This document shows, one piece after another, positions 11,902 to 35,580 of a stretch of 64,000 bases of DNA. Origin of the DNA: Roseovarius aestuarii (GTDB lineage: Bacteria; Pseudomonadota; Alphaproteobacteria; Rhodobacterales; Rhodobacteraceae); the NCBI RefSeq assembly GCF_019966515.1, contig NZ_JAIMIB010000005.1, forward strand, positions 1 to 64,000, given 5' to 3'. The notes under the pieces were generated by a model, which saw only the letters and a program-made list of their open reading frames with translations, did not search any database and was not told where the DNA came from. How positions within the stretch are numbered: the stretch's first letter is position 1; each line of letters begins with the position of its first letter. The position numbers and the translations under genes are program-made.

Positions 11902-12891
11902 TCACGCACCAATGGGGTTGTTCTCTGGCACCGCGATCACGCGGCTGCCCTCGACAAATGCCTTCAGGCTGAAATTCCACTTCGCGCCCGGCCAGTGTAT
12001 TGTCATCTCGCGTTTGCGCGGGCGATAGACGGCGGTGTAAAGCGTCCCGAAACCGGCTGAAAACGCGGTCGAGTAAAGCGGCGGCTTGAGAAATGCGTTG
12101 ATGAATTTTTCCTGCGTCTCGCGATGCAGGGTCAGGCGCTGCAACAGGTAGCGCTCACGTTCGACCGTCGCGGTGAACCGCGCATGGCTGACCCATTCGA
12201 CATTTTCCTGATGGTTCGTCGCCACGGCCGCATGGGTGATTACTGCAGGCCGGTCCGGTGCCATCATCACCGTCATGTAACGCCGCTTCGCATCCACCAC
12301 AGTCACGTTATAGCTCATATGGGTGGGCACGCGGGCCAGCACCTCGCCCGCCTCTTCCGCGGTCTTGCAGGTTTGCAGCACATAGCGCAGGATAATCGGC
12401 ACGCCGAACCCCTCGCCCACCACGCGGCGCCCGCCAAAGGTCAGCGATATGGCCAGGCCCGAGTCGTTGCAGCCATCGACCAGACCCCATAGCCCGTCAG
12501 AGGTACCCATCACCGCCCGGTCCAGCCAATTGGTGCGCACGATCAGGCTGTCAAAAGCTTGCGGGCTGTAATCGTAGTTGCGCACCATCACCGGCTGTGC
12601 GCCGGGCCAGATCGCCTGGGAACAACCCGAAAGATACGGCGGCGGACAATAAAAACTCAGAAATCGCGCCTGCTGATCGCCCCCACCTGCCAACTCGCAA
12701 AGCTTGTCGTAAAGCGGCACCAGCTCGGGCATATGCGTTTCCAGCGCCCGGCGGCATTCGAGGTATTTGGGACGGGCATTATCCCCTTCGCGCGACCACC
12801 AGCGCTGATAGTCGGGCCAGTACTCCGCAAAAATCCCGGCCCATTTGGGGCCGGGTTGATCTTCGGATATGGCGCGCCAGAGAACGTCCAT
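11902..12891 (-). CDS. C45-family autoproteolytic acyltransferase/hydrolase
   Basis: Ntn-hydrolase-like protein of 329 residues in the C45 (acyl-CoA:6-aminopenicillanate acyltransferase-like) family. The probable nucleophile is Cys90 in LSGCSQA, which would become N-terminal after self-cleavage. It is followed by the family motif PVMVRNYDYSP and by GLWGLVDGCNDSGLAISLTFGG. Known members cleave or transfer acyl groups on amide bonds. It is last in a tight minus-strand set: only 10 bases separate it from the ATP-grasp gene, which suggests action on the amide that ligase makes. The substrate is unknown. Confidence 0.8.
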   Translation of the reverse strand: MDVLWRAISEDQPGPKWAGIFAEYWPDYQRWWSREGDNARPKYLECRRALETHMPELVPLYDKLCELAGGGDQQARFLSFYCPPPYLSGCSQAIWPGAQPVMVRNYDYSPQAFDSLIVRTNWLDRAVMGTSDGLWGLVDGCNDSGLAISLTFGGRRVVGEGFGVPIILRYVLQTCKTAEEAGEVLARVPTHMSYNVTVVDAKRRYMTVMMAPDRPAVITHAAVATNHQENVEWVSHARFTATVERERYLLQRLTLHRETQEKFINAFLKPPLYSTAFSAGFGTLYTAVYRPRKREMTIHWPGAKWNFSLKAFVEGSRVIAVPENNPIGA

Positions 12892-12901
12892 ATCACGGCG
12901 C

Positions 12902-14386
12902 TTACATGATCTTGTGGTGGCTGTCGGTCAGTTCTTGCGCCGTTGGCAGGGGCCGCGCCGCGAATTGTGACTTGATACCGTGAATCCACCGTTTGGCACG
13001 CTCATTTAGCTTGAAACCGGGCGTCATCGATCGCCCACGCGTTACCAGTATGCCCAGATCAGCCCCTTCATAGCGGAAATCGCCGGGCTTCTGGATGCGC
13101 AGGAAGAAGGCTTCGTTCTCATTCTCGACCGCCCGACGGTGATAGTCGAAACGGTTGAACTCGACCCGACCGTCCTCGTCCATCCGGTAGATGCCGGTGG
13201 GTGGCGCCTGAGTGATCACGTCGACGCTGTCATCAGTGTGCTTGATCACCATCTGCGACCAGTTGTCGATCATGTCCGGATCGGCCCAGCGGGCGTTCAA
13301 TTCGTCCACATCCAGCTTGAATTTCTTCGAGCAGAATTCCAGCAGGTGGAACAGGAAGAGCGGCGCATCCGCATGGGCAAAGGCCGCATGGTTGGTCATC
13401 GATGACGCACCGGTGATGCGTGGATTCAGCTCGCCCAGCCAGATATCTCCGGTCTTCTTGTCGATCAGGAAATCCAACTCGAAATAGCCGCGATAGCCTT
13501 CCTTGCGCAGCTGTTCGCCGAACTTGAAGGTCAGATCGCGCGCCTGCTGGCGGACCTTGGGTGCAAATGCGGTCGAGAAGATTTCGTTACCGCACCAGCC
13601 GCCGCGATAGGGTGTCAGATCCTTGAACCCGACCAGTTCGGTCATCAGCGGGCCCACGATCGTGCCTTCCGAGGTAGCGCAGGCCTCGATCGCCGAGCCG
13701 CGGCAATCGATCCGCATCATGATCTTGATCTCGCCCTCGCCGACGATCTCGTGTTCATGTCGACGGAAATCGGCCTCGGACTTGATGAAGAACGTGGTGT
13801 GGCCGCTGTCGCCAAAGGCCGATTGCAACACCAGATCATGACCGATCCCGGCCTTTTCGCAAATCTTGCGCAGATGCGCGTAATCCTTGACCTCGCTCAG
13901 CGTATTGGGGACCGACGGCACCCCGGCCTTGTTGCCGATCCGGACGGTTTCGATCTTGTTGTCCATCTTGGTGCGCAGCTTGGCCTTGGGGAACCAGACC
14001 CTGCCGCCCAGTTCCTTGACCAGCCGCTCGGTTTCCTCGTCGAACATCAGGAAGACGAAATTGGGCTTGCCACCGCGCCGCTTGATCAGGTCGATCACTT
14101 CCTTGTGCTGCAACAGATAGTTGTTGATATCCTCGATCGACTGGAACTCGGCATGGGGCGCCTCGGAGGGTACGAAGGTGTTCGGATGCTGCCCGTCATA
14201 ACAATCTATATAGCTGATATACTTGAAATTCTTGGCCCATTCATCAATGCCCAGAAGGTTGAAGTTCGTGGCCGACACGAAATAGATCGGGTCCTCGCTG
14301 CGATGAAAATAACGCCGGATCTCCGAGATGTTCTTTAACACCTTGCGTGGCTTCGGCTTGCCTTTAGTTGAGGTTCTCTTGGCCAT
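12902..14386 (-). CDS. ATP-grasp ligase (biotin carboxylase-like)
   Basis: Protein of 494 residues with an ATP-grasp fold. The metal-binding stretch ELDFLIDKKTGDIWLGELNPR contains the ExNPR signature of the family, and LVLQSAFGDSGHTTF supplies the nucleotide-binding loop. No biotin attachment domain is present, so annotation as a carboxylase is doubtful; carboxylate-amine ligation is more typical of stand-alone ATP-grasp proteins. It sits 27 bases downstream of the PLP decarboxylase, which would make an amine, and 10 bases upstream of a C45 amidohydrolase-type protein. The start is ATG at 14386 after a strong purine run. The ligated substrates are not known. Confidence 0.8.
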   Translation of the reverse strand: MAKRTSTKGKPKPRKVLKNISEIRRYFHRSEDPIYFVSATNFNLLGIDEWAKNFKYISYIDCYDGQHPNTFVPSEAPHAEFQSIEDINNYLLQHKEVIDLIKRRGGKPNFVFLMFDEETERLVKELGGRVWFPKAKLRTKMDNKIETVRIGNKAGVPSVPNTLSEVKDYAHLRKICEKAGIGHDLVLQSAFGDSGHTTFFIKSEADFRRHEHEIVGEGEIKIMMRIDCRGSAIEACATSEGTIVGPLMTELVGFKDLTPYRGGWCGNEIFSTAFAPKVRQQARDLTFKFGEQLRKEGYRGYFELDFLIDKKTGDIWLGELNPRITGASSMTNHAAFAHADAPLFLFHLLEFCSKKFKLDVDELNARWADPDMIDNWSQMVIKHTDDSVDVITQAPPTGIYRMDEDGRVEFNRFDYHRRAVENENEAFFLRIQKPGDFRYEGADLGILVTRGRSMTPGFKLNERAKRWIHGIKSQFAARPLPTAQELTDSHHKIM

Positions 14387-14413
14387 GTTATCTGGTCCCT
14401 CCCTGATTGTTGT

Positions 14414-17146
14414 TTATTCTGCAGCCCGGCTGGCGGCACCCTGTCCCGCCTGGCGCGCTAACGCTTCGGACGAGAAGATGCGCAGGCCCAGATCGGGCCG
14501 GTAGCCGTGGATTTCGTTCACATCCAATGCCCGCATGAAATCAAGAATTTCATCCGAGATTACCTGCCCCGGCACGAGGATCGGAAAGCCCGGCGGATAG
14601 GGGATGATGAACGTGGCCGACACCATGTCGACCCCCTCCTGGGTTTTGGCGTTGTTCAAATCGACGTAATCGCAATTGCTTTCGTCATAACTCATGAAAA
14701 ACGCGGTCCGGATGTCACCTTCGGGCGTGGTCCCTTCGCTGCGAAACGCGTCGTGGAACCGGCTGAAATCCGGCAGCGGCGGCAGGTCTTCCATCAGGCT
14801 TTTCACCCGCTTGTCGAAGGCCCGCTGTTCCATTTGCGAGGCATCGTCCTGAAGGTCGTCAAGCTCCTGCGCGATCTGCACCAGCACCTCGATCAGATAG
14901 GCAACCGACGACCGCGTGGTGCCGATATTGGTCATGAAGAGGACGGTGTTGCGCGAGGTCTTGTTGATCTGGATGCCGAATTTTTCCATCAGAATCTTGG
15001 TCTTGAACGTATCGCCGTCCCAACCCGTACCGCCCACGGCCAGTGTGACCCGGCTGGCATCGAGCACGAATTCGTCCCTGGCCCAACTGTCCCAGATATC
15101 GTCCCAGCCCTGATCGGGTTCGTAATAGGACTTGATCCCGCTTTCGCGATGCTCCTCGGGGACCATATCGGACGCGGTTAATATCTTGAAATACTTCTGC
15201 AAAAGCGGATGCGTGGCAATCGCTTTGCGCATCGACAATGCCGCTTCGATCTGGCGCTGGACAAACTCGTACCCTTCCAGCTCCACCTGTCTGCGGCCCA
15301 CATCAAGCGAGGCGATGATCTGGTAGTTCGGCGAGGTGGAGGTATGGGTCATATAGGCTTCGTGAAAGCTCTGTTCGACCTCACCTTTGAAATCCTGATC
15401 ATGCACATGGATCATTGATCCCTGTCTCAGTGAAGTCAGGGTTTTATGCGTCGAATGCGTGGCATAGGCACGTACCCGTGCATCCGGCGGCGGCAGCAGG
15501 CGGGTATTCAGCAACGCCTCCATATCCGCGTCTTTCAACGCCTCCTGCTGCGCCTCATAGGCCGAGGCGGATTTGGTGGTGCGCAGATTCTCGCGCAGGA
15601 ACTCGGCCGTGGCCATGGCGGTGCGTTGGCGATAGATCGGGTTGAAACGCGCGAAGGCGAACCAGGCCTCATCCCACAGGAACACAAGGTCCTTTTTGAT
15701 CGCCAGGCATTCCTCCATGACGCGGCGCACATCATAAACCACCCCGTCGAAGGTGCAGTTGGTCAGCAAGAGCATCCGCACGCGGTCCAGCTTGCCCGCG
15801 GCCTTCAACTCCAGCAGTTGTTTCTTGATCTCCCGCACCGGCACGGCGCCATACATTGAATATTCATTCAGCGGATAGCTGTCGAGATAAACGACATTCG
15901 CCCCTGACAGCACCATGCCGTAATGGTGCGACTTGTGGCAGTCGCGATCCACCAGCACGATATCGCCGGGCCTGACCAGCGCCTGCACCACAATCTTGTT
16001 GCAGGTCGACGTGCCGTTGGTGGCAAAAAACGTCTGTTTCGACCCGAACGCCCGCGACGCATTTTCCTGTGCCTTCTTGATCGGCCCTACCGGCTCCAGC
16101 AGGCTGTCCAGCCCGCCGCTGGTGGCCGAGGTTTCGGCCAGAAAGATATTGGGCCCGTAAAACGCTCCCATATCCTGAATCCAGTGGCTGCGGCTGATCG
16201 ACTTACCGCGACTGATCGGCATCGCGTGGAAAACACCAGTGGGTTGTTTGGAATAATCCTTGAGTGCCGTGAAAAACGGGGTTTTGAACCGGGTCTGCAC
16301 GCCACGCAGGATATTGAGATGTAGTTCCTGAAAATCTTCCTGATTATAAAAAACCCGACGGCAGCGCCCCAGATCAAGCCCGGCAATCGCCTCGACCGAC
16401 CGATCGGTGATCAGGTAGCTGTCAAGCTCAGGGCGCACCTTGGCAATCAGGCGGGTCAGCTTTGGGCCGTAATCTTCGGGGCGCATCTCGTCGATATCTT
16501 CTTCGACATCCATCAGCGTCAGATAGCGTTGCAAAACCGAGATTTCGTTGCGCGACTTCAGCGCCAGACCGGGGCGTATCACCACCGCCTGAATATTATG
16601 GTTAAACAGGATGCCGATCAGCGCATCCTCGAAACTGGGCACGATCACCGGCTCATAATGAAACTGATCTTCGTTCCGGTGCATGCTTTGCAGCGAGCTG
16701 CGCAGCCAGCGTTCCTGATGCTCGTTGAGGTCATCAACCACCAGCACCTCGAAATAGGGCTTGGTCATCGCGCGGGCTTCGGGCGACAGCAGCGCTTCAT
16801 CTTCCAGTTCTTCGGTATCGGCCTCGTCCCGACCCAGCGGGATGGCGCGGCGGCGATAGGCACCCGAAATCAGCGCCCGCGTGATCCGCCGCACATTGAA
16901 CGCCAGATCTTCGAAATTGCGATGTTCGAAATGGCGCCGCAGATGATCGAAAGCGGTGATGCCCGGGAAGGCCCAGTAGGTTTCGATCGGCGCCAGTTGC
17001 TGTAGCAGGTCCTCGACCCGTGGCGTCAGTTTCTTTATGGTTTTTTCGTCGGGGGACCGGGCAAGCGCGTTTGCTACTTCATTCAAAGCACTCCAGCTGT
17101 CCGACCTGAGCTGAATGGCACTGAAATAATTGCTCATCGTCTTCAT
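14414..17146 (-). CDS. Orn/Lys/Arg-type PLP-dependent decarboxylase
   Basis: Protein of 910 residues in the fold-type I basic amino acid decarboxylase group. A receiver-like wing domain lies at about 115-210 (starting at EVLVVDDLNEHQ). The PLP domain has FATNGTSTCNKI, a WDEAWFAF segment with the cofactor Asp, and the Schiff-base lysine in THSTHKTLTSLRQG. A large C-terminal domain follows, with PYPPGFPILVPGQ. It is longer than E. coli CadA or AdiA (about 715-755). GGAGG ten bases before ATG 17146 supports this start. It heads the group with ATP-grasp and C45 genes. The amino acid used (Arg, Lys, Orn or another) cannot be told from these motifs. Confidence 0.88.
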   Translation of the reverse strand: MKTMSNYFSAIQLRSDSWSALNEVANALARSPDEKTIKKLTPRVEDLLQQLAPIETYWAFPGITAFDHLRRHFEHRNFEDLAFNVRRITRALISGAYRRRAIPLGRDEADTEELEDEALLSPEARAMTKPYFEVLVVDDLNEHQERWLRSSLQSMHRNEDQFHYEPVIVPSFEDALIGILFNHNIQAVVIRPGLALKSRNEISVLQRYLTLMDVEEDIDEMRPEDYGPKLTRLIAKVRPELDSYLITDRSVEAIAGLDLGRCRRVFYNQEDFQELHLNILRGVQTRFKTPFFTALKDYSKQPTGVFHAMPISRGKSISRSHWIQDMGAFYGPNIFLAETSATSGGLDSLLEPVGPIKKAQENASRAFGSKQTFFATNGTSTCNKIVVQALVRPGDIVLVDRDCHKSHHYGMVLSGANVVYLDSYPLNEYSMYGAVPVREIKKQLLELKAAGKLDRVRMLLLTNCTFDGVVYDVRRVMEECLAIKKDLVFLWDEAWFAFARFNPIYRQRTAMATAEFLRENLRTTKSASAYEAQQEALKDADMEALLNTRLLPPPDARVRAYATHSTHKTLTSLRQGSMIHVHDQDFKGEVEQSFHEAYMTHTSTSPNYQIIASLDVGRRQVELEGYEFVQRQIEAALSMRKAIATHPLLQKYFKILTASDMVPEEHRESGIKSYYEPDQGWDDIWDSWARDEFVLDASRVTLAVGGTGWDGDTFKTKILMEKFGIQINKTSRNTVLFMTNIGTTRSSVAYLIEVLVQIAQELDDLQDDASQMEQRAFDKRVKSLMEDLPPLPDFSRFHDAFRSEGTTPEGDIRTAFFMSYDESNCDYVDLNNAKTQEGVDMVSATFIIPYPPGFPILVPGQVISDEILDFMRALDVNEIHGYRPDLGLRIFSSEALARQAGQGAASRAAE

Positions 17147-17225
17147 GAAACATCGTCCTCCCTTTCGTTTTCGCAACTGCGATCAACCGGCACCCTCCCC
17201 GGTGCCAATCGCCGCAATTGTCGCA

Positions 17226-17250
17226 AAGGACGCATGTTGCACGCGTCCTT
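17226..17250 (-). terminator. Possible terminator hairpin after the nitrilase-family gene
   Basis: An eight-base stem (AAGGACGC paired with GCGTCCTT) with a nine-base loop overlaps the stop codon of the amidase gene and precedes the decarboxylase gene. A second hairpin, GGCACC/GGTGCC, lies at 17189-17206. Neither has a long T tract, so termination would be partial at best. Confidence 0.4.
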
Positions 17251-18265
17251 ACCCGCTGGCGGTTTTATCCACAGTCGGGATTTTCTGAACCTGCCCGGCA
17301 TCGTCATTTGCCGGGCTATGCCCCGCCGCCGGCGTTTCGATGCGCGGGTCCGTCAATATCAACGGGGCACCTTTTTCCCACTGTTTGGGCATTTCCAGCG
17401 GTCCCAGCGTCTGCAAATAGGCATCGGCCCCGCTGGCGCGGTCATAGACCGGGAATTCCACCTCGCGGTCGCGGAAGCTTTTCAGGACCTGCCCGAGGCC
17501 TTTCATGCCGGTATTGCGCTGCCGCCGCACCTGATCCAGATCGATCTCGATGGGGAAGATATCTTCTTGCCCGGCGGCCTGATGCAACACCTGCGCCGAT
17601 GGGTCCACGACGCAGGATTTACCCACCCCGCCCGAGCCCAATCCGTTCACATCGAACACGTAGCACTGGAATTGCGCCGCCGTGGCCCGCGCAATCGCCA
17701 GTTCCGCGTCACGGTCAGTTGTGCCGGTCAGTACCGGGTGCAACAGCACTTCGACGCCCTGCGCGGTCAGGTGACGCGTGGTTTCTGGGAACCAGATGTC
17801 ATAGCAGATCGACAGGCCGAAGCGGCCCACATATGGCACATCGAAAATACAGAACTCGGTGCCTGCTGAAACGCCAGCCTCGTACGGCCTGAACGGGAAC
17901 ATCTTGCGATAGGTCGACACGATTTCGCCCTCGGGGTTGATCACCACCGAGGTGTTGTAGATCCGCCCGTCCGCTGCGGTTTCAAACATCGAACCGGGTA
18001 TCAGCCAGATATTGTGCCGCTTGGCATCTTCCTGCAAAAGCCGGATCGTGTCGTTTTCCAGCGGCTGCGCGAATTTCGTCAGCGGGCCATAGGCCGCCAG
18101 TTCGCTGAACAAAACCATCTGCGTCCAGGGAAACCGGGCCATGGCCAAATCAATCTTATGCCGCAGCGCGTCCACGTTCGGATGGGCGGCGGCGACATGC
18201 ATCTGGATGCCTGCAATCGCAAAAGGGGTCACGTCTGTCGTCCTCGAGATGCCCGTAAGGCTCAT
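17249..18265 (-). CDS. Carbon-nitrogen hydrolase (nitrilase superfamily amidase)
   Basis: Cytosolic amidase of 338 residues with the full nitrilase triad: Glu55 in LFSELAAYGP, Lys121 in STYRKMFPF, and Cys154 in LSICYDIWFPE. Members include N-carbamoylputrescine and other amidases. Lying upstream of an Orn/Lys/Arg decarboxylase, it could act on an amide or carbamoyl derivative of the same polyamine-like product. ATG at 18265 is chosen because conserved sequence begins about 15 residues later and the long upstream extension is low quality; no strong ribosome site is visible. The C-terminal 30 residues look disordered. Confidence 0.85.
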   Translation of the reverse strand: MSLTGISRTTDVTPFAIAGIQMHVAAAHPNVDALRHKIDLAMARFPWTQMVLFSELAAYGPLTKFAQPLENDTIRLLQEDAKRHNIWLIPGSMFETAADGRIYNTSVVINPEGEIVSTYRKMFPFRPYEAGVSAGTEFCIFDVPYVGRFGLSICYDIWFPETTRHLTAQGVEVLLHPVLTGTTDRDAELAIARATAAQFQCYVFDVNGLGSGGVGKSCVVDPSAQVLHQAAGQEDIFPIEIDLDQVRRQRNTGMKGLGQVLKSFRDREVEFPVYDRASGADAYLQTLGPLEMPKQWEKGAPLILTDPRIETPAAGHSPANDDAGQVQKIPTVDKTASG

Positions 18266-19861: not shown

Positions 19862-21649
19862 GTGTCCCGCGCCTTACCACTCTCTCGCCTCGCGCCGCTA
19901 ATTAGCGACAATCCGACGCTGGTGGATCAGGTGTTGGAAACGATCTATAACGGCTGGCCCTATCAGCACCGGCTAGAGACGTTGGCTATGACCGCGCAGA
20001 TTTGTGGTGAAACCCTTGCAACCACCCTGCACCAGACTCTGACGGCGGATGAGGTCGATCAGCAATTCCTGTCGATCCTGCGGGCACGCGGCATCGACCT
20101 CTTGCCGCAAAACGGCTTTGTTCCGCCTATTTTCGATGATGTCGAAAACGATGCCATCGACCCAGACGCGCTGGCAACATTCAACAATTCCGCCCGTACC
20201 GGGCGCTGCCGGATTGTCGTGGGGGACAGGGTCATGGGCAGTGGCGGGCTGATTTCACGCCGCCTTGTTCTGACCGCCGCCCATGTCATCCGCGAGGCGC
20301 TCGCGCCCTCTTCAGGCCTGCGCAACAAACCGCCCCGCCTGATGGTCCGCGGTGCCGATGGCAGGGATTATCCGGCATGGTATGTCTTCGTCTCGCCCCC
20401 GCATGACAACGAGTTGCAGAATATGCCTGCCCCAGAGGATGCCTATGACAGCCACACGGATGTCGCGCTGCTCAGGGTCTACAAACCTCTCGGGCGCCGC
20501 CACAAGTTCGGGCATTTTGACACGAGGAAAGAACCGCCGAAAACGACGGGCACCCACCGGCTCTGGCTGGTGCATTTCCCGGAAGGTCAGGACACCGGCT
20601 ACTCCATCGGCCGCTACAAGCGCGACACCGCCCGCACCATGTATCTGCCACATGATGCAGAAACCAACGGCGGTTCGTCGGGTGGGCCAGCCTTTGATGG
20701 CGGTTTCACCTATATCGGCCACCATCAGGGCGCGCTTGGCCGCGATGGCCGGATCGTACCCTTTGACCGCTATTTCGGAAACGCCGAGTTCAAACAGGTG
20801 CTCGATAACGATCGCGCCCCCGATTACCTCTGGTCGATTGACGAAAGCATCGATAGCCACATGATCATCGGGCGCGAGCCGTTCTTTGACGCGCTCACCG
20901 CCATCACCGAAGACACGGCGCAAGCGTTGCGCGGCATCTGGGTTCGGCGCATGGATACCAGTCGCGAGGCCGGGCTTTCCTTCAGCTACAAGATCCTCAA
21001 CGCCTTTCTGCAGGCCCATGACAGCCGGGCTGAAACACACCGTATCTCGACCGATCTGCTCAGCGATGATCTGCTGGGCGATGTTGGCCTGCAGGTGCTA
21101 GGCCCCGATGCCACGCCACAGGCCTCGTCCGGCGTGGAAAGCGGGGAAACCAGCCTCGCCGCCACCGACAAGGACCGCGCCAAAACCCTGGCCAGTGCAT
21201 TGCAAAAGCGCGCTGCCGAAAATAGCCAGACCCATTGGTACTATTTCGACAACCCGCCCTCGGGTCTCTCGCGTACGGCGCAGGTACAGATGGAGCATCT
21301 GGTGGCCGAGCTTCTGACCCGCCCCAACTTGCGCATCGTGCTGGCGGGGTTCGAGACCTTCAGTCTTGCAGACCGTCAGTTCGAAACCATCATGGAAGCC
21401 CGCGATCACGGACCTCCGGGGCTGTTCATCGAATATATCGGAGAATTTACCCGCGACGATCTGCACCAGACTGTCGCAGCGATGGTTGATGATCTTGGCC
21501 TGGGCTGGAACGCCGCCATAATCGACCATGTGATCACCTTCGTGCTGGCTGATTTTCCCTCGGTCGCCGGGACATATCCCTCTGGTATCGCGGCGGAAGT
21601 GGCCGAAAAGTTGCGCACTCATGTCCGGCTGATGGAGGGGATAAGATGA
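19862..21649 (+). CDS. Trypsin-like serine protease with effector-associated-like N terminus and STAND-like C terminus
   Basis: Unnamed 595-residue protein. Residues 1-85 form a compact helical domain resembling adaptor (effector-associated) domains of bacterial conflict systems. Residues about 110-320 are a trypsin-like protease with an intact triad: His141 in LTAAHVI, Asp200 in HTDVALLRV, and Ser273 in NGGSSGGPAF. After IIGREPFFDAL (about 335) a C-terminal region looks like an NTPase fold without a Walker A loop, perhaps an inactive STAND-type domain. There is no signal peptide, so it should act in the cytosol. GTG at 19862 is the only reasonable start after the upstream stop. The stop overlaps the next start (ATGA), indicating translational coupling. 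Protease assignment is firm; the flanking domains are inference. Confidence 0.8.
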   Translation: MSRALPLSRLAPLISDNPTLVDQVLETIYNGWPYQHRLETLAMTAQICGETLATTLHQTLTADEVDQQFLSILRARGIDLLPQNGFVPPIFDDVENDAIDPDALATFNNSARTGRCRIVVGDRVMGSGGLISRRLVLTAAHVIREALAPSSGLRNKPPRLMVRGADGRDYPAWYVFVSPPHDNELQNMPAPEDAYDSHTDVALLRVYKPLGRRHKFGHFDTRKEPPKTTGTHRLWLVHFPEGQDTGYSIGRYKRDTARTMYLPHDAETNGGSSGGPAFDGGFTYIGHHQGALGRDGRIVPFDRYFGNAEFKQVLDNDRAPDYLWSIDESIDSHMIIGREPFFDALTAITEDTAQALRGIWVRRMDTSREAGLSFSYKILNAFLQAHDSRAETHRISTDLLSDDLLGDVGLQVLGPDATPQASSGVESGETSLAATDKDRAKTLASALQKRAAENSQTHWYYFDNPPSGLSRTAQVQMEHLVAELLTRPNLRIVLAGFETFSLADRQFETIMEARDHGPPGLFIEYIGEFTRDDLHQTVAAMVDDLGLGWNAAIIDHVITFVLADFPSVAGTYPSGIAAEVAEKLRTHVRLMEGIR

Positions 21650-24600
21650 AACCGCTTCCGGATCATCTGGAAACCCTGTCCGAGCGCGCCCGGCTTTATG
21701 CCGCCCTGCATGATGGCTTCCGTCCGGTCGACGCGATTACCTGGGCGAATGGCGGCAGCGTTCCCGATGACACCCAGACTGTTGCCCGCGCCCTCGCTAT
21801 GTTGCGACCCGACTGCGGCGCGCTGCCAGCAGAGCATCCCGATCCTCCGCTCTGGTCGATGCGTCCTGCCGCGCGACGCAAGATACTGGCCACGGAGATG
21901 CCGGACGACACCGAGGATGTCGATTTCAGCACGCCGATCACCGATGCGCTTACAGGCAAACGGGATTATGCCCCTGCCCGGCTAGCGGCGCTGGCAGAGC
22001 AGGGACGCGACATTGCCCGTATCGCCGCCATCACCGGCACACTTGATCGCGCTGGTCCCCGGGCAAAGGGATATAAGCATCTGGTCGCCTTGCGCGGATT
22101 GTTGAACCGCTTGCGCGCCGAAAAACGCACCGACGCCATCCTCAGCGAGGGCTTCGTCGGGCGCGAGAACGAACTGGCGCGCCTTGCCCGCTGGATCGCC
22201 AAACCGCAATCAACGACGCCGCTCAAGGCGATCTATATCTCCGGCATGGCCGGGATCGGGAAATCCTTTCTGATGGAACAGGCGGTGCAGAACGCGCGAC
22301 TGAAACACCTGCCCATCTTCGTCCGCCTCGATTTCGACCGCTCGGGCCTCAATGTGCTCGATCGCGAAAGTTTCATCGACGAGATTTCGCGCCAGGTGGG
22401 CGACGGGCTGCCCGAGATATCCAAGACACTGCGCGAGCTGCGCCTCAAGATCGCGGGCAAGGATGCGCCGGTTACCGACAGCAAACAAACCGAACCGCAG
22501 CAGACATTGATTGAGACGCTCGCCAGGGCGGTGCGGGCCTCGGGTCGGACGCTCCTGATTATTCTCGACACGCTCGAGGTCTTGCGCAGCGCCGGTGAAA
22601 CCCGGATCGAGGCGCTTTTTGAAAATCTCGACCTGCTGTCCCATGCCGGTATCGATCGGATCAGCATCATCGCCGCCGGGCGCGGCAACGCGCTAGAACC
22701 GGCCCCGAAGCGGATCACAGGCAAACCCCTGTGGCTGACCGGCCTGCCGGATCATGCGGCACGCGCGTTCCTGCGCGACCGCAATGTCCCCGACGCCCTA
22801 TGGCCGCGCGTGATGGCACTGGCGCGGGGCAATCCGCTCTTTCTGCTGCTGGCCGCCAAGGCCGTCGCGCTGGACGGGTTTGACGAGGCCGAGCTGCCCG
22901 GCGACATCACCGACGAAACCGTTGGCGGCTATCTCTACCGGGCGATCCTGTCGCGCCTGCCCGCGCCCCTGAACCGCGTCGCCACCGAGGCGTTACTGTT
23001 GCGTCATGTTACACCTGAGATCCTTCTTAATGTCGTGGCGCCGGTCACCGCCCCCGATCTGACCCGGGCCGGGGCGGATAAGGCGTTCGAATTGCTGAAA
23101 GCTCAGGACTGGCTGGTGATGTCCGGCCCCGACGGCACCGAGGTTCAGCACCGCATCGACGTCCGCCGCGCCTTCCTGCCCCGGATCTATGCCGCCGATC
23201 CGAACATTGCGGCATCGGTCAATCGCCGCGCCGTCGATTGGTTCAGCGCCCTTGATCCGTTCGAAACGCTTTATCATCAACTGCAACTGGTGCGCATCGG
23301 CGACAAAACGCCGAACCCCATCCCCACGGATCTGGCCCTGCGCTTCGATGAATTCATGCTCGAAGAACTGCCCGCCAGCGCCCGCGATGCGGTACGTCAC
23401 GCACAGGGTCGCCGGTCGGATTTCGGCCGGGCGGGTGACGTCACCACCACGCGCCACCCTGATGCGCGCGCCGTCACCGATCTCGACCTGCTGCTGAAAA
23501 AGGGTGATCTGCGCGAGGCAGGCTTCGTGATCGATAATGCCCTCAACGGGGAAATCGACCCCGACAGCCCTGCTGCCCGGTTGATGCTGTGCCATCACTG
23601 GCTGACCGGTCGCTGGTCTCTGGCGCAAAAGGCGCTGAACGCATTGCCGGAAGCCGCACTCGAACAGGCCGTTATCCACGATCCGTTGCTGCAGGGTCGT
23701 GTCCTGCTGGAGCTTTATGCCGAATATGATTTCGACACGCTGGCCGAAATGCTGTGCGATCCGGTCCTGCTGAACGCCGCGTTGCACTGCCACACCGAAT
23801 CCGCGCGTATCGGCATGGCCGGCGGGGCGCTTGATTTCGCGCTGATCGTGGCGCTTGCCGAAACCGCGAAACCGCCGCAGCTTGGCCTGGCGCGGGGCAT
23901 TCTGGCCCATAACGGGCTGGAGGACTGGCAGGCCCGCGAACGCGCCCGCGAAATGGTGCAATCACGCCGCCACCGCCACGGTCTGACATCCCGCGCAACC
24001 GGTGCCGCGGCGCAGGCGATTGGCCTTGCATGTCTGTCGCCCTTCGGGCCGCGTCTGCGGGCCTATCTTGCAGCCAGCCACAGCGCCCGCCCCGGTGAAT
24101 GGCTGGTAAAGGCGGCGACCATGCCGCGAACAGCCGCCCAGCGTTATACGCCCACTCTTCAGGCCGTTGACCAGGCCTTACCCACACGGTTCCTGACACC
24201 GCCCGATGTCGCCGCCGGGTTCGATCTGCTTGGCCTCACGGCAGAATGGGCCACCGGCTTTGCCGCCTTCAACACCATCCCCGACTTTCCGGCTTTGGCC
24301 CGGGCCGCCGATCGCTGGCGGCGGGTGGCAGCGGGGGAATGGTGCTGGGGCAAGACGCGCCCGCCGTATTTTGTCGGTACCGATGGCGATGCAGATCGGG
24401 TTACGCTCGACCGCGCCAAACGCCTGATACAGGCGGATGACCCGGTGCACAGCGCGACCCGTGAGCTGTTGCTCTGGGGCAGCCCCACGCACCCAAGGGC
24501 CGAGGCCACGCGCCACCTGCTTGCGCGTTTTGCCAGACGCTCGGACCGGGCACAGGGCCTGCCATCGCTGCCGGCCACGCTCCGCCACCTGACCGACACG

Positions 24601-24684
24601 GGCGTTCCCCCGCTGCTCGCTGCACCGCTCGCAGTGCTGGCGACGAAAAACATCCTTCTGAAAGACGCATTATCCGCCACCTGA
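21646..24684 (+). CDS. STAND-family NTPase (NACHT/AP-ATPase-like signalling ATPase)
   Basis: Protein of 1012 residues. A helical N-terminal region (1-160) precedes FVGRENELARL (about 170), the typical entry to STAND ATPases. Walker A is GMAGIGKS (200-207). Walker B is LLIILDTLE (about 303-311). The GxP motif ALARGNPLFLL (about 391-401) marks the helical lid. A winged-helix-like segment follows, then about 500 residues of helical, probably repeat-type, sensor. STAND proteins are switches that oligomerise with ATP after sensing a trigger. No nuclease or protease domain is present here, so its effectors are likely the two adjacent proteins. It overlaps the upstream gene by four bases. Confidence 0.82.
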   Translation: MKPLPDHLETLSERARLYAALHDGFRPVDAITWANGGSVPDDTQTVARALAMLRPDCGALPAEHPDPPLWSMRPAARRKILATEMPDDTEDVDFSTPITDALTGKRDYAPARLAALAEQGRDIARIAAITGTLDRAGPRAKGYKHLVALRGLLNRLRAEKRTDAILSEGFVGRENELARLARWIAKPQSTTPLKAIYISGMAGIGKSFLMEQAVQNARLKHLPIFVRLDFDRSGLNVLDRESFIDEISRQVGDGLPEISKTLRELRLKIAGKDAPVTDSKQTEPQQTLIETLARAVRASGRTLLIILDTLEVLRSAGETRIEALFENLDLLSHAGIDRISIIAAGRGNALEPAPKRITGKPLWLTGLPDHAARAFLRDRNVPDALWPRVMALARGNPLFLLLAAKAVALDGFDEAELPGDITDETVGGYLYRAILSRLPAPLNRVATEALLLRHVTPEILLNVVAPVTAPDLTRAGADKAFELLKAQDWLVMSGPDGTEVQHRIDVRRAFLPRIYAADPNIAASVNRRAVDWFSALDPFETLYHQLQLVRIGDKTPNPIPTDLALRFDEFMLEELPASARDAVRHAQGRRSDFGRAGDVTTTRHPDARAVTDLDLLLKKGDLREAGFVIDNALNGEIDPDSPAARLMLCHHWLTGRWSLAQKALNALPEAALEQAVIHDPLLQGRVLLELYAEYDFDTLAEMLCDPVLLNAALHCHTESARIGMAGGALDFALIVALAETAKPPQLGLARGILAHNGLEDWQARERAREMVQSRRHRHGLTSRATGAAAQAIGLACLSPFGPRLRAYLAASHSARPGEWLVKAATMPRTAAQRYTPTLQAVDQALPTRFLTPPDVAAGFDLLGLTAEWATGFAAFNTIPDFPALARAADRWRRVAAGEWCWGKTRPPYFVGTDGDADRVTLDRAKRLIQADDPVHSATRELLLWGSPTHPRAEATRHLLARFARRSDRAQGLPSLPATLRHLTDTGVPPLLAAPLAVLATKNILLKDALSAT

Positions 24685-24718
24685 AAGCAGTATTTCATTT
24701 TTGTAAAAGGAGTTGATT

Positions 24719-26686
24719 ATGACCAACGGAGACACCAGCGAAAGCATCAACCGCCTTGGCAGGCTGTCGCAGGACGGCACTTTCGACAAGGTTCTGAGCA
24801 GTATCAGGTCCGGCAATCCCGTACTGGAGGAGATGAAGCTGACCGAAGACCGACTGCGCGAGGCCCTCAATGCGCCGATGGACGGGCTCGAATCCGTTGG
24901 TCTGGTGCCGGGTGAGTTGGAGGCGATCATCGAACTGGTGGGCCGCCCACCCCTGGTAGTCCAGAATGACAAGGTGCAGGGCAAGACCACGCTTGACGAC
25001 TTCTTTCCCGACAATATCGGCGGGAAAATCGCCCGGGTGGAAAAATTCCTGCCCTCGGTCGGCCGGATCGAATTCTTCAATCATGACCGCGCCTGGGGCG
25101 GCACGGGCTGGGTGATTGACGAGGATGGCAGCGACCATCTGCTGGTCGTCACCAACCGCCATGTCGCCAAGTTCGTCGCCCGGCGGAATTTCCGTGGCGA
25201 GGCCGTCTATGCCTACGGCCCCGGCAATGTGCGCTATGGCGCGCGCATCGATTTCGTCGAGGAGGTCGACATCCAACCTGACCCGGGCCGCGTCTTCGTG
25301 ATTGAGGAGTTTACCTATCTCGCCGATGACATTTCAGCCGATGTCGCGCTGGGCCGCATCGCCCGCAACACCGGTATGCCGCGCATCGCGCCCCTGCCGC
25401 TGGCCGAAACCGATGGCGAGGATGGCGAAACTGTAGGGCTGGTGGGCTATCCAGCTTACGATTCACGCAATGAACACCAGCATATGGACGCCTATTTCAA
25501 AGACCTCTACGATGTGAAACGCTTTGCCCCGGGCTATCTGATCAAGGGCGACGAACTGGGTATTCTCAGCCATGACTGCACCAGTCTTGGCGGCAATTCC
25601 GGTTCACCCCTGATCAGCCTCGACCGGGGTGTCGCACTTGGCCTGCATTTTGCCGGGCGCTATGGCGTCGCCAACAGCGCTGTGCGCGCCAGCACCCTCA
25701 AGGGTATTCTAGCCGGCCAAAGCCAAATGCATGTCATCGCCGCCCTGACCGGACAGGCCACCGAGGCCGCCGATCGGGCACATGCCACGGATTTCTTTGC
25801 CGGTCGCGATGGCTATGATCCCGATTTCCTGCAGGAGGTCACGGTCCCCCTGCCCGACCTGCCCGTCAGTCTGGAACTGGCCGCGCCAGAAGACGCCACG
25901 CCCGAACGTCCGCACGAGCTGCGCTACCAGCATTTCGGCGTGCTCTATTCCGCCCGCAACAAGGGCCCGGCAGTCACCGCGTTCAACATCGATGGCAGCC
26001 GTTTCCACGCCATTAAACGCCACAACAGCACCTGGTTTCACGACCTGCGCATCCCCCGCGACATCCAGCTTGACCGCGAAGCGTATGGCCACGCCAGGAT
26101 CGACCGGGGTCACATGGTGCGCCGCTTCGCCACCAACTGGGGCACCGAGGACGAGGCAAAACGCGCCAATCTCGACAGCTACCACTATACCAATGCCAGC
26201 CCGCAACACGCCTCGCTCAACCGGTCGCGCGCGAAATGGCTGGGGCTTGAAGATTACATCCTGTCCAGCACCCGCACCCATGGGTTCCGCGCCAATGTCT
26301 TTACCGGGCCGGTCTATACGCCCGACGACCCCGAGCTGGGCACGTCCGGCGCACCGCTGCCGCTGCATTTCTGGAAGGTCGTGACCATGTTGACAAAGAA
26401 CGACTGCGGCGAGATGCAGCTTCACGCCACCGCCTACGTGCTCAGCCAGGGCCAGTTGATCCAGCAGATGCTGCAGGAGGACGGGCTGACCGAAAGCACC
26501 GAAGGCTTTGAATTCGGCGAGTTCAAGACCTTCCAGATCCGCATCGCTGATCTTGAGGCCATGACCGGCTACGATTTCGGCGCACTACGCGAGCATGACC
26601 CGCTGAACACGCTTGCGCAGACGGAAACGGCCATAACCGCCAAACCGGTGATCGAACTCGATGCGCTCCGACAAATCGTGCTCTGA
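24719..26686 (+). CDS. Trypsin-like protease fused to a DNA/RNA non-specific (DRGH) nuclease
   Basis: Protein of 655 residues with two apparently complete enzymes. Residues 1-90 are a helical adaptor. Residues about 110-330 are a trypsin-like protease: His148 in TNRHVAKF, Asp208 in DISADVALG, and Ser294 in GGNSGSPL. Residues about 400-620 are a Serratia-type nuclease with DRGHMVRR (His465), YTNASPQHASLN (Asn residues) and GLEDYIL (Glu511), matching the catalytic and metal-binding positions of that family. No signal peptide or obvious inhibitor is present, so the nuclease is probably held inactive until processed. AGGAG six bases before ATG 24719 fixes the start, 34 bases after the STAND gene. 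Confidence 0.88.
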   Translation: MTNGDTSESINRLGRLSQDGTFDKVLSSIRSGNPVLEEMKLTEDRLREALNAPMDGLESVGLVPGELEAIIELVGRPPLVVQNDKVQGKTTLDDFFPDNIGGKIARVEKFLPSVGRIEFFNHDRAWGGTGWVIDEDGSDHLLVVTNRHVAKFVARRNFRGEAVYAYGPGNVRYGARIDFVEEVDIQPDPGRVFVIEEFTYLADDISADVALGRIARNTGMPRIAPLPLAETDGEDGETVGLVGYPAYDSRNEHQHMDAYFKDLYDVKRFAPGYLIKGDELGILSHDCTSLGGNSGSPLISLDRGVALGLHFAGRYGVANSAVRASTLKGILAGQSQMHVIAALTGQATEAADRAHATDFFAGRDGYDPDFLQEVTVPLPDLPVSLELAAPEDATPERPHELRYQHFGVLYSARNKGPAVTAFNIDGSRFHAIKRHNSTWFHDLRIPRDIQLDREAYGHARIDRGHMVRRFATNWGTEDEAKRANLDSYHYTNASPQHASLNRSRAKWLGLEDYILSSTRTHGFRANVFTGPVYTPDDPELGTSGAPLPLHFWKVVTMLTKNDCGEMQLHATAYVLSQGQLIQQMLQEDGLTESTEGFEFGEFKTFQIRIADLEAMTGYDFGALREHDPLNTLAQTETAITAKPVIELDALRQIVL

Positions 26687-35225: not shown

Positions 35226-35253
35226 TTGCAAATCACCCGGGACCGCCTATATA
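35226..35253 (+). promoter_or_regulatory. Promoter of the tmRNA gene
   Basis: TTGCAA (35226-35231) and TATATA (35248-35253) are 16 bases apart, a good sigma-70-type pair. The expected start, near 35260, matches the 5' UUCG hairpin of the tmRNA precursor. Confidence 0.6.
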
Positions 35254-35259
35254 TGAACT

Positions 35260-35580
35260 GTCCTTCGGGACTATGAACATAAACGCGCTCGTAATAAGCG
35301 GATCGGACCCGGGGGCGGTACCCGGCGGCTCCACCAAAATCCCTTTCATTTGAAGGGCTTCGGGGCCGAAACAGGATCGACGAACGTCTAAAGGGGTTAG
35401 CTTTGTTTCGGTGAGGTACCACCGTTATCGGTCCGAACAGTACAATTGCAAATGACAATCGTGCTCCGGTGGCTCTCGCTGCGTAAGCAGTTGGAACATC
35501 GAAACTTAAGCCCTTGTCTCTAGCCAGATAAGGCGGGGTTCGCAGGCACCTGGCAACAGAAGCCTGCACTTCTTACCCTG
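35260..35580 (+). ncRNA. ssrA: Transfer-messenger RNA, circularly permuted two-piece type
   Basis: The acceptor piece comes first and ends at 35328-35336 with GGCTCCACCA-type sequence, preceded by a T-arm-like CCGGG/CCCGG stem. A removed spacer (35337-35361) holds a CCCTT/AAGGG hairpin. The coding piece starts at GGGGCC (35362-35367), which pairs with GGCTCC to form the acceptor stem. The tag frame begins at GCA 35448 and reads ANDNRAPVALAA, with TAA at 35484-35486. tmRNA with SmpB rescues stalled ribosomes and adds this tag, which ClpXP and others recognise; sspB lies 4.6 kb away. The 5' end is set by a GTCC-TTCG-GGAC hairpin; both outer ends are approximate. Confidence 0.93.

What the first reader, a model, noticed from the sequence alone, without database searches (positions are those of the whole stretch)
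11902..18265. Decarboxylase, ATP-grasp ligase, C45 acyltransferase and amidase as one possible pathway
Seen: three genes with gaps of 10 and 27 bases, plus an amidase 100 bases upstream. Known chemistry: a PLP decarboxylase makes an amine, ATP-grasp enzymes join carboxylate to amine, and C45 and nitrilase proteins act on amide bonds. Inference: the set makes and recycles an amine-derived amide, perhaps a polyamine conjugate or signalling molecule. I know of no described pathway with this combination.
Basis: partly seen in the sequence, partly recalled or inferred. Interest (0 to 1): 0.68.

Follow-up and report, generated by a model that had tools for sequence, protein, structure and literature searches.

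The report
Conserved glutamate-linked amide-handling enzyme operon
Four enzyme genes that stay together in many marine bacteria, and in part in some root-nodule bacteria, seem to form an undescribed pathway that turns an amino acid (perhaps glutamate) into an amine, joins it to something using ATP and later cuts it free again.

Summary
The window carries nitrilase (NIT), PLP decarboxylase (DC), ATP-grasp protein (GRASP) and C45 Ntn-hydrolase on the minus strand, and they are a conserved unit. The order NIT-DC-GRASP-C45 is kept in 70 of 72 close relatives with enough flank and in 16 of 16 regions from other genera of the family (two loci are in both sets). In the family sample DC and the close GRASP type occur in the same 26 genomes.
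GRASP lacks biotin-carboxylase motifs (0 of 23), so a ligase is likelier than its database name. DC is nearest M. tuberculosis Rv2531c, which has a structure but no known substrate. All 112 DC rows have Asn where Lys/Arg decarboxylases have the Glu thought to bind the side-chain amine; this argues against a polyamine. Neighbours point to glutamate and GABA: VcGluP-like glutamate importer (35 of 80 loci), GABA transaminase (14 of 80), glutamate dehydrogenase in rhizobia; some contexts differ.
Best reading: glutamate-type decarboxylation, ATP-driven ligation, then hydrolysis or transfer by C45 and nitrilase. No substrate is shown. Three of five rhizobial loci have a NifA/sigma-54-like promoter before DC. 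My paper searches found no description of this combination.

The parts
17249..18265 (-). NIT: nitrilase-superfamily amidase, first gene of the operon (GTG start at 18232 possible)
   Evidence: PF00795 E 1e-33; Glu55, Lys121, Cys154 invariant in 10 of 10 aligned
14414..17176 (-). DC: PLP fold-type-I decarboxylase of the Rv2531c kind (ATG start at 17146 possible)
   Evidence: OKR_DC_1 E 6e-77; 838 bits to PDB 9n0n; Lys578, Asn738, Gln871 and Arg584 invariant in 112 of 112 rows, 110 distinct
12902..14386 (-). GRASP: ATP-grasp protein, predicted carboxylate-amine ligase (database name 'biotin carboxylase')
   Evidence: NF005096 760 bits; ATP-grasp fold; biotin-carboxylase motifs absent
11902..12891 (-). 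C45: Ntn-hydrolase/acyltransferase, last gene of the operon
   Evidence: PF03417, NF040521 over cut-off; Cys90 invariant in 25 of 25; model pLDDT 91.9, best PDB match isopenicillin N acyltransferase 2x1c

Best explanation
The four genes encode one accessory pathway of glutamate/GABA-linked nitrogen metabolism. DC removes the alpha-carboxyl of an amino acid whose side chain is not cationic, most likely L-glutamate, giving GABA (inferred). GRASP spends ATP to join that amine, or glutamate itself, to a carboxylate partner as an amide (inferred from fold and from loss of the biotin-carboxylase motifs). C45, a Cys-dependent Ntn enzyme, and NIT, a Glu-Lys-Cys amidase, then transfer or hydrolyse the amide. 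Free GABA goes to GabT-type transaminases, which sit next to the operon in some relatives. Shown here: gene identities, conserved order, matched presence and absence, active-site residues, glutamate-importer and GABA-transaminase neighbours. Not shown: any substrate or product, or the direction of the C45 reaction.
For: Operon order and co-occurrence. DC: Asn738 aligns with LdcI Glu526 and is Asn in 112 of 112 rows, 110 distinct; PMC5607190 (passages) predicts Glu526 as a lysine-binding residue from docking. Arg584 stands where the three AdiA/LdcI-type sequences displayed have Ser (112 of 112). Glutamate importer: TAXI SBP in 35 of 80 loci; the L034 copy matches PDB 8s4j at 410 bits; 8s4j occurs in PMC11574862, the paper on glutamate-specific VcGluP (passages), and its residue numbers fit the chain with an offset of 28; Y45, S75, Q93, E125 equivalents kept in 35 of 35, Y200 in 30 of 35. 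GabT: the L161 copy passes TIGR00700, like copies in 14 of 80. Another class III aminotransferase (NF005685 over cut-off in the two loci tested, L059 and L070) lies downstream of C45 in 15 of 80. Glutamate dehydrogenase next to DC in rhizobial L142 and L173 and 5 kb off in L176 (L142 checked). GRASP-C45 beside an arginine-to-GABA-type set in L144 and L145 (L144 checked). DC without GRASP beside AspT antiporters in L147, L148, L175. Fold: PylC and BesA, amide ligases (roles recalled), tie with biotin carboxylase and PurK (Z 22.7 and 22.1; best row 24.2).
Against: No activity is known for any DC of this family; PMC12910592 (passages) says the Rv2531c structure study did not clarify it. The importer could supply the ligase rather than the DC. 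AspT neighbours fit aspartate as well. In L174 a DC stands near LysE/ArgO, ArgP, arginase, ornithine cyclodeaminase and an 'amine transport' ABC system, and in L149 some 2.7 kb from ectB, which fit basic or diamino acids. 29 of 80 loci have none of the TAXI, class III aminotransferase or glutamate-synthase-like clusters, and the window is such a case: its genome's best TAXI match is on another contig. Only 14 of 80 have a true GabT. Type-2 GRASP loci L050-L053 carry GRASP, C45 and NIT without an adjacent DC, and 3 of their 4 genomes have no DC at all. Two loci put the set in an ectoine-degradation operon, which gives no obvious GABA. A ligase and two amidases in one operon could equally be a protection cycle or a biosynthesis.
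Confidence: 0.35

Rival explanations
1. Polyamine conjugation: DC makes cadaverine, putrescine or agmatine, GRASP acylates it, and C45 and NIT release it (a Puu-like cycle without glutamine-synthetase-like PuuA).
For: DC is in the Orn/Lys/Arg decarboxylase superfamily. An XRE-type regulator is in 24 of 80 loci; its homologue at L161 matches the PuuR model below cut-off (142 against 211 bits). GabT is in 14 of 80. Type-2 locus L052 also has a DAO-family oxidase and an aldehyde dehydrogenase, as Puu has (recalled). The DC of L174 sits among basic-amino-acid genes.
Against: The residue predicted to bind the distal amine is Asn in 112 of 112 rows, and PGE is PGQ in 112 of 112. I saw no polyamine-synthesis gene among the ten most widespread neighbour clusters, though not every cluster was annotated. 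The L052 oxidase (a piece of 375 residues) scores only 120 bits against its best NCBIfam model, cut-off 633.
Confidence: 0.19
2. DC is an aspartate (beta-alanine) decarboxylase, and the ligase makes a beta-alanyl amide which C45 and NIT hydrolyse.
For: AspT antiporters beside DCs without GRASP (L147, L148, L175), with aspartate 4-decarboxylase in L147 and L175. Most rhizobia are said to lack PanD (PMC10228743, passages). Some C45-family proteins cleave beta-alanyl amides (recalled).
Against: The importer beside the operon in 35 of 80 loci is of the glutamate type. The set is accessory (26 of 149 family genomes), unlike a vitamin pathway.
Confidence: 0.15
3. The set belongs to osmolyte or amino-acid catabolism in general (ectoine, arginine) and processes different amides in different hosts; the DC is a loosely attached partner.
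For: Ectoine operon context with DoeA and DoeB over cut-off (L166); arginine-type context without adjacent DC (and by eye L178); DC-less type-2 loci; DC without GRASP and a second, 50% identical DC in G101.
Against: In the family sample DC and type-1 GRASP are never separated (26 and the same 26 genomes).
Confidence: 0.2
4. GRASP is a biotin carboxylase as annotated, and the genes are neighbours without a common pathway.
For: NF005096 name, over cut-off; biotin-carboxylase-like fold.
Against: QVEH and ECSxQRRxQK are absent in 23 of 23 rows, and the Gly-rich loop reads GDSG[HKR]T in 23 of 23; gene order is strongly conserved.
Confidence: 0.03

Closest known systems
M. tuberculosis Rv2531c (PDB 9n0n/9n0o)
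   Same: Same long decarboxylase, 838 bits over nearly the full length; shares the Asn, Arg and PGQ positions
   Different: Substrate unknown; its gene neighbours were not examined here
E. coli LdcI/AdiA (Lys/Arg decarboxylases)
   Same: PLP core with STHK lysine
   Different: Glu526-type residue and PGE motif absent; about 150-200 residues longer
Puu gamma-glutamylputrescine pathway (details recalled)
   Same: Logic of ATP-dependent amide formation, later hydrolysis and a GABA transaminase; regulator related to PuuR near 24 of 80 loci
   Different: Ligase is ATP-grasp, not glutamine-synthetase-like; hydrolases are C45 and nitrilase; a decarboxylase is part of it
Isopenicillin N acyltransferase and NAAA (Ntn enzymes)
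   Same: Fold; Pfam AAT and an invariant Cys
   Different: 12-19% identity in the first 15 rows; substrate unknown
PylC and BesA ATP-grasp ligases
   Same: Same fold, Z 22.7 and 22.1
   Different: 10-12% identity, tied with carboxylases; no shared function shown
Ectoine doe operon
   Same: In L166 (checked) and L167 (by eye) the set is embedded in it
   Different: Not part of the window operon

Membership tests
Biotin carboxylase | ATP-grasp E-x-N-x-R motif | tested here: met
   ELNPR aligned to EMNTR in the 8 of 23 rows printed; E319, N321, R323 invariant in 25 of 25
Biotin carboxylase | QVEH, ECSxQRRxQK and Gly-rich GGGG[KR]G motifs (catalytic role recalled; letters from the same genome's carboxylases L002, L003) | tested here: not met
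   QVEH 0 of 23, ECSxQRRxQK 0 of 23, GDSG[HKR]T in 23 of 23; both carboxylases have QVEH and ECSxQRRxQK
Orn/Lys/Arg decarboxylase superfamily | PLP lysine in STHK, with His414 and Asp502 | tested here: met
   112 of 112 rows
Lys/Arg/Orn-specific decarboxylase | Glu526-type residue for the distal amine | tested here: not met
   Asn in 112 of 112 rows; Asn also in Rv2531c; the role of Glu526 rests on docking (PMC5607190)
Glutamate decarboxylase (function) | Converts Glu to GABA | not testable with these tools
   Only context and residue evidence; by family it matches OKR_DC_1
C45/AAT family | Pfam AAT domain and conserved nucleophile Cys | tested here: met
   Cys90 in 25 of 25
C45/AAT family | Autoproteolytic maturation | not testable with these tools
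   Needs protein
Nitrilase superfamily | Glu-Lys-Cys triad | tested here: met
   E55, K121, C154 in 10 of 10
Puu pathway | Glutamine-synthetase-like PuuA ligase in the set | tested here: not met
   The operon's ligase candidate is ATP-grasp
Rhizopine-type system (rhizobial loci only) | Nodule-expressed synthesis beside nif genes plus uptake genes | tested here: inconclusive
   NifA/sigma-54-like pairs in 3 of 5 loci; nifHDKE beside DC in L143; no expression or product data

The most novel reading that the evidence does not exclude
The DC-GRASP-C45 core is a new amine-conjugate pathway whose first enzyme is a second, unrelated kind of glutamate decarboxylase (GABA-forming, Orn/Lys/Arg-decarboxylase fold). 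On rhizobial symbiotic plasmids it has been placed under NifA/sigma-54 control to make an opine-like GABA or glutamate conjugate in nodules, which the adjoining ABC importer and amidase take back.
Probability: 0.12. Interest if true: 0.85.

Novelty: new variant of a known kind. Interest (0 to 1): 0.58.

Why it matters
It turns four loosely annotated genes, one probably misnamed 'biotin carboxylase', into a coherent and testable pathway shared by marine Rhodobacteraceae, other proteobacteria and symbiotic plasmids. It offers a substrate hypothesis (acidic amino acid) for a decarboxylase subfamily that has a solved structure but no known reaction.

Tried and rejected
Biotin carboxylase reading of GRASP: rejected on motifs. 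Naming GRASP's partner by fold: failed, because carboxylases, PurK, PylC and BesA tie. Counting cluster 6 (30 of 80) as GABA transaminase: corrected to 14 of 80 (two copies cut at a locus edge, at 44-47%, not counted); the rest are other class III aminotransferases. Counting cluster 12 (8 of 80) as glutamate synthase: its representative (195 aa) gave no Pfam match; only the representative of cluster 17 (5 of 80 loci) did. NifA promoter: no pair in 2 of 5 rhizobial loci (L142, L143) nor upstream of NIT in the window; the motifs were recalled, and the shuffles kept base content only. Sigma-70 promoter and terminator scans of the window gave no more than shuffles. Several plasmid copies look decayed: 8 of 32 GRASP records cover under half of the query. 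A first regular expression for the Glu526 position found nothing and was replaced by an alignment; of 155 DC hits only ORFs over 800 aa with over 500 aligned were counted (111 plus the window). Paper searches gave no description of the set in their listings. In PMC8305402 (passages) an ATP-grasp 'biotin carboxylase', Bphy_7724, is up in a nifA mutant; I did not test whether it is a homologue, and its direction is opposite to NifA activation. The paper on Rv2531c itself (PMC12329521) is not held.
Full report
What is there. The window lies on contig C55 of a 4.76 Mb genome. On the minus strand, in transcription order, are NIT (17249-18265), DC (14414-17176), GRASP (12902-14386) and C45 (11902-12891), with gaps of 72 or 102, 27 and 10 bases. 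Pfam and NCBIfam give CN_hydrolase, OKR_DC_1, 'biotin carboxylase' NF005096 (over cut-off) and C45/AAT. The own genome shows no OKR_DC_1 match outside DC and no other protein over the NF005096 cut-off.

Is it one unit? In 149 genomes of the family, GRASP of the same type (>=77% identity) occurs in 26; a second type (about 45% identity) is in G100, G034, G038 and as a second copy in G119, plus a 105-residue fragment in G028. A separate search with DC found it in 26 of 148 genomes, and they are the same 26. Of 72 with enough flank, 70 show NIT-DC-GRASP-C45 on one strand; L107 has NIT between DC and GRASP, and L113 has no NIT found. All 16 regions L034-L049, fetched from 16 of the 26 genomes, show the order too; in L048 C45 lies 2.4 kb off. 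Two loci are in both sets, and all are related genomes, but the window's outer neighbours (5-26 kb) are not kept. At E<=1e-40 GRASP is in 8 of 289 genomes of the class and 11 of 398 of the phylum, family members included.

Variants. L168 has NIT-GRASP-C45-DC. L170 and L171 have DC-GRASP-C45 without NIT in the stretch. L169 has DC-GRASP with C45 and NIT on the other strand. In Shinella L144 and 'Roseateles' L145, and by eye in Sinorhizobium L178, GRASP-C45 stand with agmatinase-like, 5-guanidino-2-oxopentanoate decarboxylase, aldehyde dehydrogenase, D-amino-acid dehydrogenase and racemase genes, and no adjacent DC (L144 checked). Type-2 loci L050-L053 have GRASP, C45 and NIT without adjacent DC; of G100, G034, G038 and G119 only G119 has a DC, and it also holds a type-1 set. 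DC without GRASP stands beside AspT antiporters in L147, L148 and L175, among basic-amino-acid genes in L174 (the same plasmid carries GRASP elsewhere) and some 2.7 kb from ectB in L149.

The enzymes. DC: best PDB relative is Rv2531c (838 bits), whose activity is unclear according to PMC12910592 (passages). PLP residues are intact in 112 of 112 rows (window included; 110 distinct). LdcI Glu526, predicted by docking to bind lysine (PMC5607190, passages), aligns with Asn738, which is Asn in 112 of 112. Arg584 stands where the three AdiA/LdcI-type sequences displayed have Ser, and is Arg in 112 of 112. PGE is PGQ (Gln871 in 112 of 112). These changes remove negative charge and add positive charge near the PLP lysine in sequence; whether Arg584 lines the pocket was not tested. 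GRASP: AlphaFold2 model pLDDT 87.1, ATP-grasp fold of the biotin-carboxylase, PurK and PylC kind. Against two carboxylases of the same genome it keeps E-x-N-x-R but has QVEH in 0 of 23 and ECSxQRRxQK in 0 of 23 rows. C45: model pLDDT 91.9, nearest isopenicillin N acyltransferase, then NAAA and acid ceramidase. NIT: Glu-Lys-Cys kept in 10 of 10.

What it works on. Neighbours within 9 kb in the 80 loci: TAXI SBP 35, TAXI permease 36, XRE-type regulator 24, class III aminotransferases 30, Usp 18. All 24 regulators match the L161 copy at 49-58%, which scores below the PuuR cut-off. The L034 SBP matches PDB 8s4j at 410 bits; 8s4j is named in PMC11574862, the paper on glutamate-specific VcGluP (listing, passages), and the binding residues Y45, S75, Q93 and E125 have counterparts in 35 of 35, Y200 in 30 of 35 (numbering mapped by hand; M201 is Thr in L034). 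The own genome has two matches to this SBP, so 35 of 80 is far above what scattered genes would give, though the loci are related. GabT proper is in 14 of 80 loci, and an NF005685-type aminotransferase is downstream of C45 in 15 of 80. Rhizobial L142 and L173 have glutamate dehydrogenase next to DC, L176 5 kb off. From this I infer glutamate or GABA as the common currency. It is an inference: 29 of 80 loci have none of the TAXI, class III aminotransferase or glutamate-synthase-like clusters, AspT neighbours allow aspartate, and L174 and L149 point to basic or diamino acids.

Rhizobial side line. On five Rhizobium or Sinorhizobium plasmids DC-GRASP, with C45 in three of them, stand together; in L143 DC starts 1.1 kb from nifH. 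In L172, L173 and L176 a NifA UAS and a sigma-54 -24/-12 match (0-1 mismatch) lie 63-89 bases apart upstream of or at the DC start (expected 0 to 0.003 per region in base-content shuffles); L142 and L143 have none; the nifH control of L143 is found with 2 mismatches. In L142, L143 and L173 an ABC importer (peptide type by my reading), an amidase and an RpiR regulator follow. Some copies are decayed.

Verdict. The idea of one pathway is well supported; its polyamine flavour is not favoured. The chemistry proposed is the most economical one that I see, but no step of it has been shown.

Noticed in passing
window 19862-26686, + strand: Three adjacent genes: Trypsin_2 domain protein, 1012-aa AAA/NTPase protein, and Trypsin_2 plus DNA/RNA non-specific endonuclease protein; looks like a protease-NTPase-nuclease conflict system.
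   Followed up: no
window 35244-35577, + strand: tmRNA gene, tag ANDNRAPVALAA.
   Followed up: no
L184 5811-11808 (own genome, other contig): The own genome's TAXI SBP and permease lie beside an NF005685 aminotransferase on the other strand, the same two kinds of gene that flank the operon in relatives.
   Followed up: partly
L172, L173, L176 upstream of DC: NifA UAS plus sigma-54-like promoter pairs before a decarboxylase operon on rhizobial plasmids.
   Followed up: partly
L147, L148, L175: DC without GRASP beside AspT antiporters; in L147 and L175 also aspartate 4-decarboxylase and in L175 an HdeA/HdeB-family chaperone: possibly an acid-resistance set.
   Followed up: no
L142 and L173: Nif11-like RiPP precursor with radical-SAM epimerase and C-methyltransferase near the DC operon.
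   Followed up: no
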